From Tremella fuciformis (lineage: Eukaryota > Basidiomycota > Tremellomycetes > Tremellales > Tremellaceae), in assembly GCA_032768795.1 (NCBI GenBank), contig CP136495.1:1304501-1368500 (forward strand): DNA of 64,000 nt, read 5' to 3'. Position 1 is the stretch's first letter. The number at the start of each line of letters is the position of its first letter. The notes below the pieces were generated by a model. The model saw only the letters and a list, made by a program, of their open reading frames with translations, did not search any database and had not been told where the DNA came from. Both the position numbers and the translations under genes were made by a program. Below, in pieces: positions 6,570-34,320 of this stretch.

Positions 6570-7757
6570 TTACTTCTTGCCTTTCTTCTTCTTGCCACCG
6601 CCGCCACCACCGCCGCCGCCGCCGCCGGCGCCAGAAGGATGGGCGGTACTGCCTTGAGTGAAGCCAGTCCCCATGCTCTCTTTAGCGCCCTTCTTCTTGC
6701 TCATCGCGGTGATGTAGGATTGGCGCTGTCTCAATGGAATCCACCGCTCGGGCTGAAGGATCAGCCGCGAATCGGCAGGAGAGATCTGATACCCACATCG
6801 AGATTGGTCAATTTGCCTTCGACAGCGCCCTTTGGCAGCTTGTGACGCCTCTTCTTCTCTTTGGTCTCTTTCTTCAATACGCCCTTGGTCTGAGCAGGAA
6901 GTACAACCTTCTTTGGTGCAGCCGAAGTGCTGGATCCTGTCCCGCCGGTGGCCCATCCAGCAGGAAGTGAAGGGACCTGGGTCTCGAGATCGGCACCAGA
7001 GGACGAGGGAATTTGAGAATGGAAGCCGTGTGAGAGGAATTCGAGGTGCGCAGAAGTTGCAGAGAGATTGGTAATGATGTCTGGCTGCTCAGGCGAGGAC
7101 TATCCGTCAGTATGATGGCACCTCGGCCGAACGAGGGGATCCTCACAACGTCGACAGAGCCGAGAAGATCGTCGTAAAGCTGTTGAGCTCGCTCATACTC
7201 ACCCAACCGGTATCGCTAGCCATCAGCACTGCGCGAAGATGGCGTTCAGTCCAGTAAGGAGGAGTGACACTGACAATCTGCGCTTCCAGATGCATCTCCC
7301 TCCTACCCTTGTCCGTCCTGCCTTCCAGCACTTGCAAAGCCTCCTTCTCCCTGTGTAGGCGGTACAAGCAGTATGCGCGTTCGAACTGCAGACTCTTCTT
7401 GGCATCGGGTCGGGATATCACAAGGTCCAGGGCAGAAGGGTAGTCGTCCGTGTGCAAGTGGAGGAAAAGCAATGTCTGGAAGGCGGCGTCGGACTTGGCA
7501 TCGAGATTGAGGACTGATCATTAGCTTCAGAAAGCTCAATCCACAGGCTAGCTCGTTTAAGCAAGGAATGCGAGCCTCACTCTTCTTGCACGTCTTGATG
7601 GCGTTCTGAAAGTACCCATCGTTCACCTGGTCGGTAAGGGCTCTGTACAGCTGCGGCAAGCGTTCCGCAGCGGGACGCGGAGGGCGAGGTGTAAAGGTCC
7701 GCTTCTTGGCCGGCTCTGCCGTAGGCGCAGAGGCACCTGCAGGTCGTTTTGACGCCA
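6570..7757 (-). CDS. SRP72: Signal recognition particle subunit SRP72, short form
   Basis: SRP72 is the tetratricopeptide protein that binds SRP68 and the 7S RNA in the signal recognition particle. The N-terminal part reads MASKRPAGAS, LPQLYRALTDQVNDGYFQNA, then FERAYCLYRLHREKEAL, RYRLGEYERAQQLYDDLL and PDIITNLSATSAHLEF, which tracks the family's first repeats. The C-terminal part has a lysine-rich tract and then PERWIPLRQRQSY, the family RNA-binding signature, ending in a glycine run and GKKKKGKK. I place introns at about 7580-7520, 7280-7205, 7145-7095 and 6800-6760; all join in frame. The product is roughly 345 residues against 550-670 usually, because the central TPR block is absent. It is otherwise an open, spliceable gene, so it may be a shortened functional form, a damaged copy or an assembly deletion. 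Confidence 0.8.
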
Positions 7758-7935
7758 TGGTGACCCTTGAACAAGAAAGAGGCGATTCCAGAAGCCAACT
7801 GGCAACGGGTCCAACGGACTCGGGGAAACAACGCGATGTCAGGCTCACCTGCTTACCCCACCTTTTCCCCACCCGCCATCTCGACAAGTGCCGCTTTCAC
7901 TTGGCATTGCATTTTCGCTAGCCCTCCCGAAATCA
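7758..7935. promoter_or_regulatory. Divergent promoter of SRP72 and the RmlD-like gene
   Basis: Only 178 bp separate the SRP72 start from the A of the ancestral start codon of the RmlD-like gene, so one short region must have served both. The mini-Helitron at 7936-8618 now separates it from the RmlD-like coding region by 683 bp. The promoter role is inferred from gene layout only. Confidence 0.55.
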
Positions 7936-8618
7936 TCAGCGTAGCTCTTACGGGGCGAATTTCTGCGGGTGTCCCTGGAACGAAAACGGTAAATGGGGGA
8001 ATTAAATAAGAAAATTCCGGCCATTCTGATTTCATCAGCACAATCCTAATATGCATTGTGTCCTTGCCAAATTGCCTTTCATCAGAGAATAAAGATCTAT
8101 GCATGAGGCTGATGCATGGAATGATCTCTGTAGCAGAACCAATCGCCTACATAGCTACTGCCATACCCTGCCCTATCATTGCACCAAAATGGTTACAATA
8201 GCGCAAGTCTGACAAGACTGCAATAGGCTTGCCAGGTGGCAGCTGTGACATAGCCCCTGTGACCAGCTTGGCATGCCTATGATCATCTGATCAGCCTAGC
8301 ATGCCCAACAAGCACTTGCGCATCTCTTGATGAAGTGCTTTAGCTTGCAACTAATCAATGTTCTACAGTACATCCGGCTTTGCCGGATGCTTGACCCGTA
8401 AGGGCTGCGATGGCTGCGCCGCTAGGCGCAAGGGGGGGTCTTGGGGGGGTGTCCCACCCCCCCATGTCTAACGGAACCAAAGAACAAGGAATTGCATTAG
8501 GTTTTCCAAATTGCCTGAGAACCAATAACTTGAATACCTGATTAGAAATTCAGAGCTAAAAAAGAATTGAAATAACGAGCTACGCCCTATCGCGCACTTT
8601 CCTGCACGATCTACCTAG
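7936..8618 (+). mobile_element. Non-autonomous mini-Helitron, copy A
   Basis: This 683-bp element begins with TCAGCGTAGCTCTTACGG and ends in CTAG. Eight to ten bases before the end is a stem-loop (8590-8596 pairing with 8603-8609, one mismatch, six-base loop), the usual Helitron terminator. It is flanked by A at 7935 and T at 8619, the Helitron target dinucleotide, and there is no target duplication. Two further copies of the same length lie inverted at 26366-27048 and 27049-27731, and I see no differences between them. The first 80 or so bases resemble the 5' end of the autonomous element at 27745-34293, which probably supplies its transposase. It has no convincing coding capacity. Its insertion splits the ATG of the next gene. 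Confidence 0.93.
8371..8463 (+). other. Structured GC-rich core of the mini-Helitron
   Basis: This block holds a perfect 8-bp hairpin (CATCCGGC, three T, GCCGGATG at 8371-8389), a repeated GGCTGCG, two runs of seven G (8432-8449) and a G7/C7 foldback ending near 8463. The same block is present in copies B and C. The structures are seen in the sequence; any role, such as a folded RNA or a replication block, is conjecture. Confidence 0.6.
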
Positions 8619-9951
8619 TGTCGAAAACGGTCGTTGTTACTGGTACGGTCAGCTGCCATATCGCCACGGCTCAGCTGATGGTGCAGGAGCCAGTGGGCTG
8701 CTCGGGCGGGCGGTCGCTGCAGAGTTCGCTGCCAAGGGCGACAAAGGTATGCCGCGAAGCACCCAGCTGGGTATGCCGCTGAGAACAGTCATCAAGCTTG
8801 CGTGGACCCGTGCAGACAAAGACAAGAGCTACACCAAGCTCGACCTTACTGACGAGGCTGCGGCCGAGGCTTTCTTCTCCCAGAACAAGGTGGACGGTCA
8901 GTTCCTTCCTCACAGGCCGTGCTCCAGCTGACCAGCAGTCGTCGTACATTGTCAGCTACCGTCGATTTTGCGCTCAGCGTAGCTGATGGCAGGCGCCGCG
9001 GAGCGAAGGCCAGACGTAGCAGAGGCGGTAAGTCAGCCTTCCTGATCGACGCACCTCAGCTGAACACCAGAACCCTGAGCTGGTCAAGCAGGTCAGCTGC
9101 CGCTTTATACATGGCCGGAGCAAGCTGAGTGTCAGATCAACGTCGACGTGCCCCTCCGTCTTGCATCGATGGCGAAGAAGCACGACTTTGAGCTCCTCTT
9201 CATCTCCACGGACTACGTTTTCGACGGCAAGAAGTGAGCGAAACCAACATGTCGCCATCGGCGAATCTGACCACAGCCCGCCTTATGAGGTTGATGCGCC
9301 GACGAGCCCGCTGCAGTCTTACGGCCAGTCCAAGGTGGATGCCGAGCAGGCCATTCTTAGCGTCAGATCACAAGGGTCGCGCTCGACCATCCTCCGCATA
9401 CCGCTCTTGTCAGCTGGACAGAGATTTCTTCGTCAAAGCTGACGCATAGGTACGGCAAGACAGAGTACAATGCAGAATCTGCCGTCAACATCATCCGCGA
9501 TGGTCCGCTTCGGTGCCTTGGTGAAAGTCCCAGCTGACGATCAGTGGTCGAGGACCAGAGCGGCAAGACGTACAAAATGGATCATGTTCAGTCCCGTTTC
9601 CCTACGAATGTAGAAGACGTGGCTCGGGTACTACACGACCTCGCTCGTCAGCTGCACACTGGCCCATCCTCGGAGCAGAAGCTGACGGTAGACCTGGACA
9701 AGGAGCTGCCGGCCATCGTGCACTACTGCTCGCCCGCACCTGCCGTGACAAAGTATGACATCACAGTCATCATTGCCGATGCGCTTGGTCTCCCGCATAC
9801 GCATGTGATCAAGGAGACGACCGTCCCCGCTGGCGCCACGTCCCGACCCGAGAACTCGCAGCTGAGCACGAAGAGCCTAAAGGAGCTCGGCGTAGACACT
9901 AGTGAGAAGGTGCCGTTTGCGGATTGGTGGAAGGCATACGTGAAGCAGTAG
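8619..9951 (+). CDS. RmlD/MAT2B-like NAD(P)-binding reductase, start codon split by a Helitron
   Basis: This is an extended short-chain dehydrogenase of the RmlD family, closest in outline to the beta (regulatory) subunit of methionine adenosyltransferase. Joining exons over short introns (8648-8686, 8747-8788, 9092-9135, 9409-9449 and others) gives SKTVVVTGTGASGLLGRAVA with the Rossmann TGxxGxLG motif, then LLFISTDYVFDGKK, the catalytic YGQSK (YxxxK), STILRIPLLYGKTEYNAES, and SRFPTNVEDVARVLHDLARQ near the end. The N-terminus should read ATG TCG AAA ACG, but only TG TCG AAA ACG is present here; the A lies at 7935 on the far side of the Helitron. The Helitron's final G makes an in-frame GTG. 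No in-frame ATG lies between the upstream stop (8573-8575) and this point, and the next internal methionine would lose the Rossmann fold. It is probably silenced or weakly translated. Confidence 0.85.
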
Positions 9952-26365: not shown

Positions 26366-27048
26366 CTAGGTAGATCGTGCAGGAAAGTGCGCGATAGGGC
26401 GTAGCTCGTTATTTCAATTCTTTTTTAGCTCTGAATTTCTAATCAGGTATTCAAGTTATTGGTTCTCAGGCAATTTGGAAAACCTAATGCAATTCCTTGT
26501 TCTTTGGTTCCGTTAGACATGGGGGGGTGGGACACCCCCCCAAGACCCCCCCTTGCGCCTAGCGGCGCAGCCATCGCAGCCCTTACGGGTCAAGCATCCG
26601 GCAAAGCCGGATGTACTGTAGAACATTGATTAGTTGCAAGCTAAAGCACTTCATCAAGAGATGCGCAAGTGCTTGTTGGGCATGCTAGGCTGATCAGATG
26701 ATCATAGGCATGCCAAGCTGGTCACAGGGGCTATGTCACAGCTGCCACCTGGCAAGCCTATTGCAGTCTTGTCAGACTTGCGCTATTGTAACCATTTTGG
26801 TGCAATGATAGGGCAGGGTATGGCAGTAGCTATGTAGGCGATTGGTTCTGCTACAGAGATCATTCCATGCATCAGCCTCATGCATAGATCTTTATTCTCT
26901 GATGAAAGGCAATTTGGCAAGGACACAATGCATATTAGGATTGTGCTGATGAAATCAGAATGGCCGGAATTTTCTTATTTAATTCCCCCATTTACCGTTT
27001 TCGTTCCAGGGACACCCGCAGAAATTCGCCCCGTAAGAGCTACGCTGA
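26366..27048 (-). mobile_element. Non-autonomous mini-Helitron, copy B
   Basis: This is a 683-bp copy of the element at 7936-8618 in the opposite orientation, with the same CTAG end (26366-26369, followed on its own strand by T) and the same TC start. Its 5' TC directly abuts the CTAG of copy C, so it has no A on that side. I see no base differences from copies A and C. Confidence 0.93.
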
Positions 27049-27731
27049 CTAGGTAGATCGTGCAGGAAAGTGCGCGATAGGGCGTAGCTCGTTATTTCAA
27101 TTCTTTTTTAGCTCTGAATTTCTAATCAGGTATTCAAGTTATTGGTTCTCAGGCAATTTGGAAAACCTAATGCAATTCCTTGTTCTTTGGTTCCGTTAGA
27201 CATGGGGGGGTGGGACACCCCCCCAAGACCCCCCCTTGCGCCTAGCGGCGCAGCCATCGCAGCCCTTACGGGTCAAGCATCCGGCAAAGCCGGATGTACT
27301 GTAGAACATTGATTAGTTGCAAGCTAAAGCACTTCATCAAGAGATGCGCAAGTGCTTGTTGGGCATGCTAGGCTGATCAGATGATCATAGGCATGCCAAG
27401 CTGGTCACAGGGGCTATGTCACAGCTGCCACCTGGCAAGCCTATTGCAGTCTTGTCAGACTTGCGCTATTGTAACCATTTTGGTGCAATGATAGGGCAGG
27501 GTATGGCAGTAGCTATGTAGGCGATTGGTTCTGCTACAGAGATCATTCCATGCATCAGCCTCATGCATAGATCTTTATTCTCTGATGAAAGGCAATTTGG
27601 CAAGGACACAATGCATATTAGGATTGTGCTGATGAAATCAGAATGGCCGGAATTTTCTTATTTAATTCCCCCATTTACCGTTTTCGTTCCAGGGACACCC
27701 GCAGAAATTCGCCCCGTAAGAGCTACGCTGA
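27049..27731 (-). mobile_element. Non-autonomous mini-Helitron, copy C
   Basis: This second 683-bp unit is head to tail with copy B. On its own strand it is preceded by A (27732) and its CTAG is followed by the T of copy B's TC. Thirteen bases (27732-27744) separate it from the autonomous Helitron. Confidence 0.93.
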
Positions 27732-27840
27732 TGAAAGAGAGCGACTAGGTAAATCGGCGGTGGCGCGTCGCCGATGGGGCGTAGCTCTGACTCCGGAAAA
27801 TTTTGGACTTTTCATCTCTCATCTGTACATCTACATCAGA

Positions 27841-28376
27841 ATGGCTTTCCAGTCAGCTTTGTTCAAAAAAGCACTCAGGCAGCACCAGAGAGAGCAAAAA
27901 AAGCGACATCCCAACCCTCATGATGAGCACAAGCATTCCTGCTCTCAACAAAGCCGCCCACAGCCAGTCAGACACTCTCCCTATCACCCACCCCAGCAAC
28001 AATCCTACCTGCCTCCTGGGTCAGGCAAAGTCAATGGAGAGAAGAAGCCATGGGTGCCCAAAAGACCTGTTGTGAAGTCCTTGTGAGTCAGGCTCTCTCT
28101 TGGCATGACACAAAGCTGACTTGTAGCTTCAATGGTCCAGTCACCAATCCCCAGACCTTCAGATTGCCCTTGTGGAAAAGTAGGATGCTGGATTGGCTGA
28201 GGAAGATGAGAACACTCAGAGGAGGAGAAAGCCCACCTGGAACTCCTCTCTTCACTCCTCCCCCCACCCCTGAGCCTCCTACCTGGTCAGATCCCCCAAC
28301 TCCTGCTGCTGATGATCCTGTGTGGGATGATTACAGACAGGAGATGGAGGCAGATAGAGGTAGTGTTAGTAGCTAG
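27841..28376 (+). CDS. Second, accessory gene of the autonomous Helitron
   Basis: I do not recognise this protein. Two exons (27841-28082 and 28127-28376) flank a 44-nt intron with GTGAGT, a GCTGAC branch site and a TAG acceptor, giving 163 residues. The unspliced frame stops at once, so the intron supports a real gene. The N-terminal part is basic and rich in His, Gln and Pro (KKALRQHQREQKKRH; HPPQQQSYLPPG); the middle has PVTNPQTFRLPLWKSRMLDW; the C-terminal part is proline-rich and acidic (TPPPTPEPPTWSDPPTPAAD). It lies in the 3' part of the Helitron, opposite in strand and convergent to the Rep-helicase gene. A nucleic-acid or protein-binding helper role would suit the composition, but that is conjecture. 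Confidence 0.65.
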
Positions 28377-28507
28377 AGAGAGCACAATGACATGCATACA
28401 CCCCATGAACTTGAGATTCAGCTGATGCATCAAACACTCAGAGTCATGCTTGATCAACTTTTATTCAGTCTACCTATGCATTGTCATTCATCTTTTTCTC
28501 TATACAT

Positions 28508-31500
28508 TTATTCTGTCATCTGAAGCATCTGACGTCTAGACGCATCCCTTGCTGCCAATACACGTCCTGATACTCCCCCCCTTCTACTCTCTGTGTTCAA
28601 GCTGTTCAATCTTGCCCAATCAAAGCCTGGCTTGAAAGCAAGGCCCTCCAGAGATCTTGCTCTTGAGATTGCCACAAATGTCAATCCCGTTGAGAAGTCG
28701 GCTGAACCAAGATCAATCACTGCCTTGTCCAGCGTCATACCCTGTGATTTGTGTATGGTGATAGCAAATGCAAGCTGCAGTGGCAGCTGGCGTCGAGAGC
28801 ACCGCTGCCCGTTTGTTGTCTCCCATCTGGCTGTATGGGGCACAATGGGAACCAGTGGTATGTTGTCTGTGGTGTGCCAGGGTGTTGGTCCAGTGTAGGA
28901 TGGGAAGGCGACCATGACCACAGAAGGAACAGATTGATGAGGAGGCTCAGATGGTGAGAGCCCAATCTGATATACTGTGCCCCTGGTGCCATTGACCAAT
29001 CCCTGCTCGATCCAGAGGTTGCGAGAAAGCATGACTTGAGCACCAATCATGAGGAAGACAGCAGGAGCAAGCCCCTGTGCCTGTTCCTCTGAAGCCTGGG
29101 CTGCTCCTACCCCTGTGTGCTGAGCCAGAGAGCGCAGTACAGGCTGTCCAGAGCGAGCCAAAGTGTGTAGGTTGATCTCGGAGACACTCTGCTTTGTTGC
29201 ACAAAGACATACAGCATCTTGAAAGGCCTGCTGAGATGCCGGGGAAAGGTTCCCCCAGAAGCGAGAGGACAGAAGGGTGTAGTCCTCCTGTTGAGGTGTC
29301 CCGGTGTGCAGGCGAGCAAGGGTTGCTTTGAAGGCAGTGGTGGTAGGGTCGGAGCCTTCCTGCCTCATAACAGCATCAAGCTGAACGCTCTCAGTGAAAG
29401 CAAGGTAGATATCTCGGCCAATGTTGCTGAGCCTGCCTAGATAGGAGGTTTTTGTCGAGCGTGCAGTGTTGTACAGTGGAGTGTCTCCCACAGGGGGCAG
29501 TTGACCAAAGTCGCCAATGAGCAGGACAGACAGACCGGCAAAGGGCAAGTACGCTGTCGACGGAAAGATTTGACCAAGAGCAAGGTTGATTCTCCCCAAG
29601 GCCGCCCTTCCAACCATGCTTTTCTCATCAATGATGAGGTATCGTGTCCCATGCCACTCTTCCTGGAGGCTGGCAAGCTTTCCCTCTCCAAGCTTGTCAT
29701 GACTTTCCTCTATTGAGCCTCCAAGACCAAGGGCAGCATGGTATGTTGAACCAGCAATGTTGAATGCCGCCACACCCGTGGGGGCAAGCCGGCGGACAAT
29801 GGGATTTGTGCTGAAGTCGAGATTGTTGTGCTGCCCAGATTGGAGCCCTTGAAGAGCTTGGGATATGGCGTCAATGAGGAAGGATTTGCCTGTTCCTGCT
29901 GTCCCATCGATGTTGAGGAGTATTTGAGGGACTGACTCTCCAGAGAGCAGACGGTTGGCATGGCGCAAGACCTTGTCAAAGATGAGGCGCTGTGTGGTGT
30001 TGAGTAGTTGGGGATCGACAGTGTTGCGAGCTACAGAAGGCTGAGACTGCTTGGTCAGCTCACAGTATGCAGTGGATTGTAGGCCACTGCTCACCTTCTT
30101 GCGTTCGGTTTCTAAGTAGCTTGCCCTCTCTCCTATACCATCTGATCCCCACTCCCTCCCCACTGCTTCCCAATCGTGGGAAGTATCAATATCACGTGCT
30201 CCAAGCAGTGGCCCATTCCACCCATCTTCATCAAACTGAGGGCCCATTCCAGCCAGAACTTGCCAGTCATCAAGCTCGTGGTCATTGACTTCTTCACCCT
30301 CAGAAAACTCTGAGTCACTGTCGTTTTCATTGTCACCCTGTTGTTGACGGATGGGTCGCTTGGGCAATGTGTCTTGGTGCCCCTCTGGGTGGTCCTCAGT
30401 ACAGCGAGAAAAAGCTTCTGTCCAGGATTCGTCATCAAGCTTGAGCTCTGAAGGGTGTCGATGAGGATGGTGGAGTAGTAACTTTGCCCGGCACCAGTTT
30501 TGGTGATCCTCAGACTGAGGGTCTGATGGATAATACAGCGGCCAGAGAATGATGATCTTTGGGTGCTTCCTTCGAGTGGCGTTGCGACCTTGTTTCCGGT
30601 AGAATTGAAACCATTCGTACAGGCTGATGCCCTCATGCTCTGGCTGGCGTGCCAAGTAGGCATCGTGCCAGTCTTGCTCCTCCACACCTTGGTCCAGTCC
30701 CTCATCTTCCTGCCTCTGCCTCAGGCGTCTCTGTCTCTTTTCCAGTATGCAGAGTGTGCCAAACTCTCGTGATGCAGACATCATATGTCGACCAAAGAGC
30801 TGATGACAGACTTCCTGAGCACTGTAATCCCTCTCGGTGACAATGCGGCTGAGCATCTTCTGGAAGACAATTCGTGAAGATGTTTCTTGCTCCAGGCGGG
30901 TTGAGATAGCCTGCATTATCTCGCCAAAGTTGTTGGATGGTTTTTCGCATTTTGAAGCATACTTGGAGATGTAGGAGGCAACTGCACGGGGATCTGTGCA
31001 TGGACTGATGTCGGAGTTGGCTCGCCATCCCAGTGCAGTGACTGCATTGTAACTGTTGAGGTGGGTGTCGTTGCGTGGTGTGATGAGTTGCTTGTTTCTG
31101 TTGGGATTGACAACCAGTCGGAGTTCTGTCTCCAGCTCCTTGGGGAACTTGAAGCGACAGACAAGCGGACTGTTGGGAGGAGATCCTTTTGGGCGGCGAA
31201 GACAATAGGCAGTGCACCTCGTGTGCCTCTGGACACGGTTGAGCATCTGTGCCAGATCTTTGAAGCGAAAGATGATTTCGTCGCTACTGTGGGCAGAGGG
31301 GTGCTTTGGATGAGGCGGAATGTCCTCTCCAGGATTGATGGTTGACACTCTGGTGGACCAGAAGTCAAGGAATTCCTGGACACTGTCCGGATTGTTGATA
31401 TCAAGGGTGTCTGGGGATGGCGCCCCCTTGAGCCAAACCAGTCCATGGACATGGCTGGAGCCTCGATTTTGCCATTCAAAGCGATACCACCAGTCCTCTA

Positions 31501-34021
31501 TTCCAAGCAGGGGTTTGAGGACCTTGGCCAAGAACAGCTCAAATCTTCGATAGAACCAGCAAGCTGCAATTGCTGGGTTCTCATTGACGTTCTTGGCATT
31601 GATGCGTTGTCGATCAGGTTCGCTCATAGTTGGTAGCGCTTGGTCCGGCATGTGGACGTGGAGATCTGGCCACTGAAGATCCGCAGCTGAGAATGTGATG
31701 AAAGCATGTGGAGTGCCCAGTTGACGGATCATTGCAGCAAGATTGCGACTCTGCTGTGCCCAGTAGGGTGGTGTTCCGGTTAAGGTGGCTGCTGATCGTC
31801 GCACTCGAGATGCCAGCTGCTTGGCTGGGTCGGACACCATGGCAGCAATGTCTGCAGCAGAGAGGGCTCGGTCCTCTTCATTCCGGCTGACATAGAAGCA
31901 GGAGAGCCGTTTTGCTCGCCACCTCATGATGCAGTTGAAGGCATAATAGCTGACTGTCAGCTTGGCTTAATGCTGAGAGATGCACTCACCGGAATCGAGG
32001 GTGTTTTGCAAACCTTCCATCCTGATAGTAGAGCAGGTGACGGAAGTAGTCTGAATCACGTATTGTGGTAGGCCGTTGTTGATGCAGATCCCCCTGGCCG
32101 GTGGGGAAGAGGAAGGGGAAGGCCTTGGTGAGGAATGGGTTGCTGATGTCGTGCTCATTGATTGGAGTGGAATGCAGCACAGGTCCAGTGAGGAGCAGGG
32201 GTGCTGGTGGTCCTCCATCCACCACCTGTTCCAGTGCTTCCCGGATCTCCTCCACAATATTGTTGCCTTCTCCAAGGTTTGGTATAGCCAGCTCTGGCAA
32301 GCTTGTCTCCTCTGCTGACTCCTGCTCAACTGGCCCAGTGTCAGGCTCAGGTGCGCTGTACTGCACCTCCTCCAAGTTGACAGACCGCAGCTGATGGAAG
32401 ACAGAACCGTTTTCAGGAAGGGAATTGATTGCTTCCCAGTTGATCTCGACATTCTGAAAGGCTGGATGGAAGTGTTGTAGTGCTTGCAGGTTTGCGAGAA
32501 TGCGTGACCGCTGGACTTGGAACTCTGGTCGGCGTGCAAAATCCTCTGAGGGATTGGCAGCGTTGGCGGGGGCTTGGGCATTTGTCGGCTTGATGATGAG
32601 AACATCAAGGTCGGTGACGGTGAGGGGAAGTCGAGAGAGGAATCTGCCACTGTCATGGGCATAGAGACAGGTGTGGCCTCCGTATTTGGTTTGTCCACCA
32701 CCAACGCGCCATGTTTGAAGCAGCACATGGTAGGGAGAGAGGAGCATCTCTTCCACCTGTGAGGGCAAGTCAGGGACTGCTCTGCCAGCTGCACGGCACA
32801 GTTCCTGCAGAGAAGGACCTGTGAAGTCAGTCATGAGAAGCACATACAATCCTGGACACTGACCTGGATCCATACAGTTGGCAGATGTCCATTTCTCCCC
32901 ATCAATTTGACAACGTGAACATTTACCCTGTTGGACCTTGAGTCCAAACCATTTCTCATTGCAGTTCTCGCAAGTCTCCATCGTCTCAGCTGCCATTGCT
33001 GAGTGGAAGTCCCCAATACACCCAATGGCAGCTTCAGAGAGGCAGATGTCGTCAAGATCGTTGGGTGTTGCAGGAATGGGCAGGAAGGCATTGCCCAGCA
33101 TGTCGACTGAGAGGGATGACTGAGTTGACTGTTGTCGACGATGATAGGCTGCTCTGGAGGATTCGCGACAGGTGCTGCAAGTCTTGAAGCGGCGAGAGGC
33201 TGTCCCTGCTTGGAGAAACTCGGAATGTTCTTTCCAGGTCTTGCACTTGAAGCAGCGTGACTGTCCAGCATGGCGATCCAGGCGTGGTGGTGGGGCTGGT
33301 GGCTGTTCTGTGACTCGGTGTGCAGCACCTTGAGGCGGGCTGGGCGGAGTGGCGTAGGGCAGTTGAGGTGCACGTCTGGTTCGTGTGGGGCGGCCAAGCT
33401 CTACAGGATGTAGATCCTGGTTGCGACGTGGTGTTGGTGAGGTGACCTCATGGCGCGGGCGTGGAAGACCTCTCTGTGTACCAGGCGTAGGCTGAGAGCC
33501 TGGGGTGACTGGTGGCAATGGCCGGGTTGTGCGAGTGGGTGTGCCTGGCGCTGATTGGGAGTGATGCTGCTCCAAGCAAGATTGGCATGTGTTGCGTGGG
33601 CGACCTCGATTGTCTCGAAATCGAGGAGTGGCAAAGGTGAAGCCACATTTGATGCACTCAGCATGACCATGCCGTGACCGGGGTGTTGCAAGTGGGACTG
33701 GCGGTTGTTTGCGACAGAAGGAGCATGTTTTGAAGAAGTCGCTGCTGCCCCGCCCTGAAGAAGCCTTCCGAAAGTGATCACCATTGAGAGTTGTGTGCTG
33801 ACCCAAACAGCGTTGGCCTCGAGAGCAGTGCATTGCTGCAATATCTGGGACTTTCTGCATCAGTATGTGCATGCATCGCTTGAAGGCAAAGCTCACATTG
33901 ATGTTATGGACAAGCCAACACTTGATCATGCATCAACTTGCAAGAAGTTCAGCTGTACTCATCAGCCCATGCATGCATGACAGAAGAATGGGCGACTTAC
34001 AGTGGGTCCAAAGTTAGGCAT
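28508..34021 (-). CDS. Helitron Rep-helicase (rolling-circle transposase)
   Basis: Three exons (34021-34001, 33854-31990, 31949-28508) give about 1775 residues. The last intron is certain from [16 protein letters not shown] across the join; the first exon (MPNFGPT) is my best model. The N-terminal region has several Cys-rich fingers: CSFCRK, CIKCGF with CQSC, CFKCKT with CSTC, and CENCNE with CSRC. The Rep part has [14 protein letters not shown], the HUH motif in [14 protein letters not shown] (histidines near 795 and 797) and the paired tyrosines of [11 protein letters not shown]. The Pif1/SF1 helicase has [15 protein letters not shown] (Walker A), [12 protein letters not shown] (Walker B), [14 protein letters not shown] and [19 protein letters not shown]. 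Together these nick, unwind and transfer one strand. All motifs look intact. Confidence 0.93.
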
Positions 34022-34320
34022 GCAATAGGAAGTGAGAAGATTAGGTGTGCAAGGCAAGCCAGGCAGCCTGAAATCTCTAAGTGCTCCGGAATTTCTTTAT
34101 TTGATCCCCCCACATAAACAGTCAAACTGCCAGGGCTTCGCCAGATTTGAGTAGAGAGGGGGATGAGGATGAAAATTCAAAGTCCCCTCCACCCTTATAC
34201 CCAGCCTGCCGGAAAATTTTTATTTGGCCCCCCCACTTACCGTTTTCGTTCCAGGGACACCCGCAGAATTCAGCACCGTAAGAGCTACGCTGATGAACTG
34301 GGTGTCCGAAAGGAGCTTGT

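What the first reader, a model, noticed from the sequence alone, without database searches (positions are those of the whole stretch)
7935..8621. Helitron inserted exactly between the A and the T of a start codon
Mini-Helitron A (7936-8618) has A at 7935 and TGTCGAAAACGG from 8619. Removing it restores ATG TCG AAA ACG, giving MSKTVVVTG, the normal start of an RmlD/MAT2B-like Rossmann protein, directly downstream of a compact divergent promoter. With the element present there is no in-frame ATG between the upstream stop (8573-8575) and the Rossmann motif. The only replacement is a GTG made from the Helitron's own last G, or another near-cognate codon. Because Helitrons require an A-T target, every ATG is a legal site; this is a clean case of a start codon used that way. 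It raises the question of whether the gene is lost, uses non-AUG initiation, or gained a new leader from the element.
Basis: partly seen in the sequence, partly recalled or inferred. Interest (0 to 1): 0.9.

Follow-up and report, generated by a model that had tools for sequence, protein, structure and literature searches.

The report
Recent Helitron splits one start codon
A small, recently multiplied jumping element has landed inside the start codon of a conserved enzyme-like gene in a fungus, probably silencing it; the element usually lands just upstream of genes, so a hit like this is expected now and then.

Summary
Window 7936-8618 is a 683-bp non-autonomous Helitron (5' TCAG, 3' hairpin, CTAG) between A7935 and T8619. 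Joined flanks read ATG TCG AAA ACG. Orthologues (P0010 MSKSVVVTG, P0015 MSKQVAVTG) support that ATG as the start of a MAT2B/RmlD-like gene whose body is intact; one locus was found in this assembly.

The target is TNN^T, not strictly A^T: T at -3 in 64 of 64 compared copies, A at -1 in 37. A nested copy shows a G^T insertion with no base gained or lost.

The family looks young (190 exact 3' ends; 63 of 64 gap-free copies identical). In an unselected set, 37 of 43 copies lie upstream of a predicted gene and 4 inside one; 209 of 300 matched control sites lie inside genes. A crude model predicts about 1.7 start-codon hits among 64 copies; one is well supported.

Most likely the allele is null or strongly reduced: GTG8618 replaces the ATG in poorer context, below 16 ATGs in the element, and the terminal AG is a weak splice acceptor. 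GTG/ACG rescue is possible, untested.

The parts
7936..8618 (+). Non-autonomous Helitron copy (called E here): 5' TCAGCGTAGC, 3' hairpin, CTAG
   Evidence: repeat unit, exact nested boundaries.
7933..7935 (+). Left target flank TCA; A7935 is the A of the split start codon
   Evidence: T at -3 in 64 of 64 copies compared.
8619..8620 (+). T and G of the split start codon
   Evidence: orthologue register.
8618..8620 (+). GTG formed from the element's last G and the stranded TG; in frame with the gene
8573..8575 (+). In-frame TAA inside the element upstream of GTG8618
8619..9951 (+). MAT2B/RmlD-like gene body; about 10 exons, introns 39-44 nt, no frame break by my homology-guided splicing
   Evidence: 62% identity to P0001; RmlD_sub_bind 3.1e-54; last intron 9503-9544.
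7836..7838 (+). Upstream in-frame ATG, open to A7935; probably 5' leader, possible alternative start
   Evidence: most listed homologues have no such leader.
6570..7758 (-). SRP72-like neighbour on the other side of the divergent promoter (predicted model)
8589..8610 (+). 3' subterminal hairpin, 8 nt before the end
   Evidence: RNA.fold of the last 60 nt, -6.6 kcal/mol; coordinates.
27745..34293 (-). Autonomous relative (called B here) encoding a Rep-helicase; first 86 bp 87% identical to E
26366..27731 (-). Two further identical E copies in direct tandem

Best explanation
A young non-autonomous Helitron, mobilised in trans by the RepHel of its autonomous relative B, inserts at TNN^T sites mostly just upstream of genes. 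One copy fell into TCA^TG at the start of the MAT2B/RmlD-like gene. The AUG is gone. The native promoter now reads into 683 bp with 16 ATGs before reaching a GUG that replaces the AUG in poorer context. The gene body is still intact because the insertion is recent. The allele is most likely null or strongly reduced. Shown: boundaries, homology, target rule in the copies compared, copy number, upstream placement (on predicted gene models). Inferred: RepHel as the mobiliser, recency, loss of expression.
For: Element and empty-site logic; orthologous starts; 63 of 64 gap-free full-length copies identical, one with a single mismatch, two more with small indels; RepHel with Helitron_like_N and PIF1 and 47 equal-scoring matches; 37 of 43 unselected copies upstream of a predicted gene and 4 of 43 inside one, against 209 of 300 matched control sites inside genes; ATG count and in-frame codons; one locus of the gene found.
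Against: No expression data. The gene body has no frame break, which also fits a gene still in use. Near-cognate starts (ACG, AUU, CUG) are used in Cryptococcus (PMC7049704, passages), so a low-level product is possible. Upstream placement could partly reflect selection; it rests on a home-made gene finder, trained partly on the same flanks and validated on few genes, with controls from this 64-kb window only.
Confidence: 0.72

Rival explanations
1. The gene survives by non-AUG initiation: a transcript starting in the element's AT-rich tail, after its last ATG (8464), initiates at GUG8618 or at in-frame ACG8582/ACG8606, giving the old protein with at most a short new leader.
For: Last 150 bp of the element is 39% GC against 48% for the whole; no ATG after 8464 in the element; gene body intact; near-cognate starts known in a related genus (PMC7049704, passages).
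Against: GTG context has C at -3 where the ATG had A; 'GUG' has 0 occurrences in the main text of PMC7049704; no test for a promoter in the tail was made.
Confidence: 0.13
2. The true start is the in-frame ATG at 7836, so the element hit an internal Met codon and not the start.
For: Frame open from 7836 to 7935; gene finder chose it on the joined flanks.
Against: 109 of 120 listed homologues have the glycine motif within 12 residues of their start, 2 with MSK in exact register. Reading from 7836 into the element would meet TAA at 8007 (read by eye), so the gene would be broken anyway.
Confidence: 0.08
3. The element is spliced out or supplies an upstream coding exon, its terminal CTAG acting as 3' splice site.
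For: AG lies exactly at the element's end; five combinations of an ATG with a donor scoring above 0 would be in frame.
Against: 81% of window AGs score at least as high as the terminal AG (-0.83); the best in-frame donor scores 1.88 against 2.25-6.44 for eight of this gene's own donors (which were seeds of the scoring matrix); introns would be 170-650 nt against a median of 44. Donors scoring 0 or less were not examined.
Confidence: 0.04
4. The junction is an assembly error.
For: Highly repeated element; no reads available here.
Against: Non-repeat flanks on both sides, exact boundaries, TNN^T rule obeyed.
Confidence: 0.03

Closest known systems
Canonical Helitron (Helitron1), e.g. Helraiser/Helibat1 (PMC4778049, passages seen)
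   Same: 5' TC, 3' CTAG, 3' hairpin, no target duplication, RepHel partner; Helraiser insertions are enriched in promoters (2.5-fold; 7.3-fold for the 500 most expressed genes).
   Different: Helraiser went into AT in all but 46 of 1,751 sites; here A at -1 in 37 of 64 copies, with T at -3 in 64 of 64.
FoHeli1/FoHeli2 of Fusarium oxysporum (PMC5148889, passages seen)
   Same: FoHeli1 starts TCAG; reported target has a fixed T upstream: TNAT^A in the text, TNAT^T in a figure legend.
   Different: FoHeli1/2 end in ATTTT with inverted repeats; here CTAG, with T on the right.
HELPO1/HELPO2 of Pleurotus ostreatus (PMC4289320, passages seen)
   Same: Basidiomycete Helitrons with CT[A/T]G end and RepHel; AT-rich flanks reported.
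   Different: AT target given as the general rule in its background section; no start-codon case in the passages seen.
Xuan/Feng pair of wheat (PMC13286980, passages seen)
   Same: Non-autonomous element moved in trans by an autonomous relative.
   Different: Marked AT preference reported.

Membership tests
Canonical Helitron (non-autonomous) | 5' TC terminus | tested here: met
   TCAGCG in all 64 gap-free full-length copies and in the three others with a 5' end.
Canonical Helitron (non-autonomous) | 3' CTRR terminus | tested here: met
   CTAG; 190 exact 3' ends followed by T (CTAG and T were part of the pattern). Boundary confirmed by nesting.
Canonical Helitron (non-autonomous) | Subterminal 3' hairpin | tested here: met
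   7 pairs with one mismatch, 6-nt loop, 8 nt to the end.
Canonical Helitron (non-autonomous) | No target-site duplication | tested here: met
   One nested E copy at E123/124; B at E114/115 by coordinates.
Canonical Helitron (non-autonomous) | Insertion between A and T | tested here: not met
   Met at this copy; in the family A at -1 in 37 of 64, G 14, T 13. Helraiser itself is not absolute, so I file this as a variant.
Canonical Helitron (non-autonomous) | RepHel-encoding relative with similar ends | tested here: met
   B at 27745-34293: Helitron_like_N 3e-30, PIF1 1.2e-19, first 86 bp 87% identical.
Helitron2 / FoHeli type | T-rich 3' terminus | tested here: not met
   3' end is CTACCTAG.
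Helitron2 / FoHeli type | Terminal inverted repeats | not tested
   No separate search for inverted repeats was made.
MAT2B / RmlD_sub_bind SDR | RmlD_sub_bind domain and N-terminal Rossmann glycine motif | tested here: met
   PF04321 3.1e-54; VTGASGLLG.
MAT2B / RmlD_sub_bind SDR | Regulatory partner of S-adenosylmethionine synthetase, or reductase activity | not testable with these tools
   Names come from homologue records only.

The most novel reading that the evidence does not exclude
A Helitron family with a TNN^T target and a strong bias to the region just upstream of genes repeatedly breaks ATG trinucleotides, and in this gene it has exchanged AUG for a functioning GUG (or in-element ACG) start, the element's own tail acting as promoter and leader.
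Probability: 0.1. Interest if true: 0.65.

Novelty: new variant of a known kind. Interest (0 to 1): 0.42.

Why it matters
It is a clean natural start-codon hit by a Helitron whose copies are still almost free of differences, so it allows a test of what happens to a gene soon after losing its AUG. The larger value is the family: many near-identical copies with known boundaries, a target rule (T at -3) that departs from the textbook AT rule, and placement mostly upstream of genes, which bears on how Helitron transposases choose their sites.

Tried and rejected
Set aside: two further apparent start-codon hits. L018 reads MSYVKSHLPPDS-MGVTFSTLWSRLF...; the ARF-like family normally starts at MG (recalled, not tested), so the element probably sits 36 nt upstream of the real start. 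L022 reads MSDLQLPSS..., but the predictor put the start at an in-frame ATG 79 nt upstream of the junction. Neither was checked by homology, so they are not excluded.

Rejected: orientation bias relative to the nearest downstream gene (23 of 37 same sense, p 0.19; non-divergent 14 of 22, p 0.29).

Led nowhere: codon scores at junction ATGs, too weak for short first exons; the MAT2B-like case itself scored negative. The first two gene-finder runs failed (error; runaway introns). Rfam and tRNA scans of the window found nothing. Literature: searches for Helitron + start codon + insertion (15 of 94 papers listed), Helitron + start codon + disrupt + ATG (10 of 19 listed) and transposon + 'inserted into the start' + start codon (1 paper) listed no title that describes a Helitron splitting a start codon. 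No paper of these three listings was opened, and the library is open-access only, so this is weak evidence of absence.

Full report
What is there. The element at 7936-8618 is flanked by A7935 and T8619. Its 3' end carries a hairpin (8589-8610) and CTAG. The similarity search of the assembly (28.14 Mb, 11 contigs) listed 42 full-length identical matches, all on C1, with only 40 of 242 candidates scored. A 22-base pattern ending in CTAG|T has 190 exact matches, and A plus the 5' end has 120; only the first 100 places of each were shown. Three identical copies lie in this window: 7936-8618 and a tandem pair at 26366-27731.

The gene. Splicing the window from 8618 onward gives VSKTVVVTGASGLLGRAV..., with introns of 39-44 nt and no frame break once a last intron (9503-9544) is included. 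The exon edges were chosen by eye to fit the protein family. The protein matches RmlD_sub_bind and, best, Cryptococcus and Kwoniella proteins at about 60% identity (P0001 62%). Of the 120 homologues listed (of 2889 hits), 115 match my glycine-motif expression and 109 have it within 12 residues of the start. Six have longer leaders (P0021, P0030, P0032, P0046, P0053, P0083). Five do not match the expression, of which P0023 and P0026 visibly begin downstream of the motif. P0010 (MSKSVVVTG) and P0015 (MSKQVAVTG) have the same register as the empty-site ATG. Only one locus of the gene was found in the assembly, with a 128-residue query.

The organism is inferred to be close to Tremella. The top homologues are Tremellomycetes. 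An 8.65-Mb contig C1 and 28.1 Mb in total resemble Tremella fuciformis, whose largest core chromosome group averages 8.45 Mb (passages of PMC13066641). No direct identification was made.

Target rule. Among 64 distinct full-length copies compared without gaps, -3 is T in 64; -1 is A 37, G 14, T 13, C 0; -2 is C 30, T 21, G 7, A 6. In the unselected 43 among them, -3 is T in 43 and -1 is A 26, T 9, G 8. Six ends were left out of this count: a copy broken by the nested insertion (L009), one with extra internal DNA (L017), one broken by B (L023), a 46-bp 3' fragment (L030) and two with small indels (L033, L038). The three of these whose 5' end was found (L017, L033, L038) also have T at -3. The T at +1 was required by the patterns that brought most copies, so it is not independent evidence. 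Thirty loci were fetched for having TG after CTAG, so +2 is biased. The pair in L067 share flanks and are not independent. The autonomous relative has T at -3 at 5 of 5 5' ends held.

That the element is exactly 683 bp, and that the T belongs to the target, is shown by one copy nested in another (L009: left TATGCATTG, right TGTCCTTGCC..., equal to element positions 115-123 and 124-683), which is a G^T insertion. B at the same place starts exactly after position 114 if it has the 6549 bp of the window's B. Both ends of an inserted copy recreate TNN^T (CTAG^T on the right, TNN^TCAG on the left), which would explain the tandem copies (inference).

Breaking ATG is common, breaking a start codon is not. 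Of the 64 copies, 28 are TCA^T, which splits an ATG on the opposite strand, 12 are A^TG on the element's strand, and 29 are one or the other; in the unselected 43 it is 18. Genome-wide 32 matches to CTGCACGATCTACCTAG|TG were found, of which 30 were fetched (its pattern is shorter than that, so it is not strictly a subset of the 190). Only the MAT2B-like case is a start codon with homology support.

Where copies lie. I wrote a small gene finder trained on the window and the fetched flanks. It found the MAT2B-like, SRP72-like and RepHel regions, but for the MAT2B-like gene it chose the ATG at 7836 and kept intron 2. The unselected set is the 43 full-length copies with CTAG|T on C1 from 0.23 to 6.66 Mb (44 ends in the list, one a broken copy). 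It gives 37 upstream of at least one predicted gene, 2 not upstream, 2 in predicted exons and 2 in predicted introns; three of these last four are within 85 nt of a predicted start. Control sites matched for the four target bases, drawn from this window: 172 exon, 34 intron, 3 start, 48 upstream, 43 downstream of 300. Inside-gene, 4 of 43 against 209 of 300: Fisher p 2e-14. By the nearest-gene definition used for the control, 33 of 43 are upstream against 48 of 300 (with the four TG copies on C1 added by hand). The control comes from one window and the predictions are hardly validated, so the size of the effect is rough, and selection cannot be separated from targeting. A weighted count of legal sites at start codons against the 100 nt upstream, from 24 predicted genes and 8 copies within 100 nt, gives about 1.7 expected start-codon hits among 64 copies and 5.1 among 190. 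Since the 64 include copies fetched for TG, the comparison is loose. One good case is in line with, or below, expectation.

Fate of the gene. The empty-site context had A at -3; GTG8618 has C at -3. The element carries 16 ATGs on the sense strand, the last at 8464. Gene prediction with the element in place starts at 8773, inside intron 2, losing the Rossmann glycine motif. Splicing rescue is weak: the terminal AG scores -0.83 and 81% of window AGs score at least as high; in-frame donors exist but are weak and far away. Near-cognate starts ACG, AUU and CUG are reported in Cryptococcus (passages of PMC7049704). Best reading: null or strongly reduced allele, confidence 0.72.

The mover. B (27745-34293, minus strand) has a 1139-aa ORF with Helitron_like_N and PIF1 helicase, and 58 nt upstream of it a 647-aa ORF with DUF6570. 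PF14214 has 70 matches in the assembly, 47 of them with the same score and a 1152-aa open frame (counted by hand); their DNA identity was not compared. That this RepHel moves E is inferred from shared ends.

Known context. Helraiser insertions favour promoters and open chromatin, with AT targets in all but 46 of 1,751 (passages of PMC4778049). FoHeli1/2 are said to use TNAT^A in the text and TNAT^T in a legend (passages of PMC5148889). Upstream bias is therefore not new in kind. The strict T at -3 with a relaxed -1 in a CTAG-ended Helitron was not seen in the passages I had.

Noticed in passing
window 27745-34293 (-): Autonomous Helitron with RepHel; 47 of 70 PF14214 matches in the assembly share its score and a 1152-aa open frame, which suggests a recent burst.
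   Followed up: partly
window 31986-33929 (-): 647-aa ORF with DUF6570 next to the RepHel ORF, 58 nt away, possibly one gene with an intron.
   Followed up: no
L009 and L023: The 3' end of the autonomous element is followed by TATGCATTG of a mini-element (from position 115) at two loci, as if the compound had moved as a unit or the site is a hot spot.
   Followed up: partly
L067: Two mini-elements separated by a 14-bp unit that also precedes the first copy: element plus flank seems duplicated in tandem.
   Followed up: no
window 7836-7935: In-frame ATG upstream of the split start codon with 33 open codons; could give a second, longer protein form in an empty-site strain.
   Followed up: partly
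window 8643-9544: Introns of the MAT2B-like gene are near-uniform in length (39-44 nt), and three of the eight listed start GTCAGC, several carrying AGCTGA; possibly a trace of intron spread.
   Followed up: no
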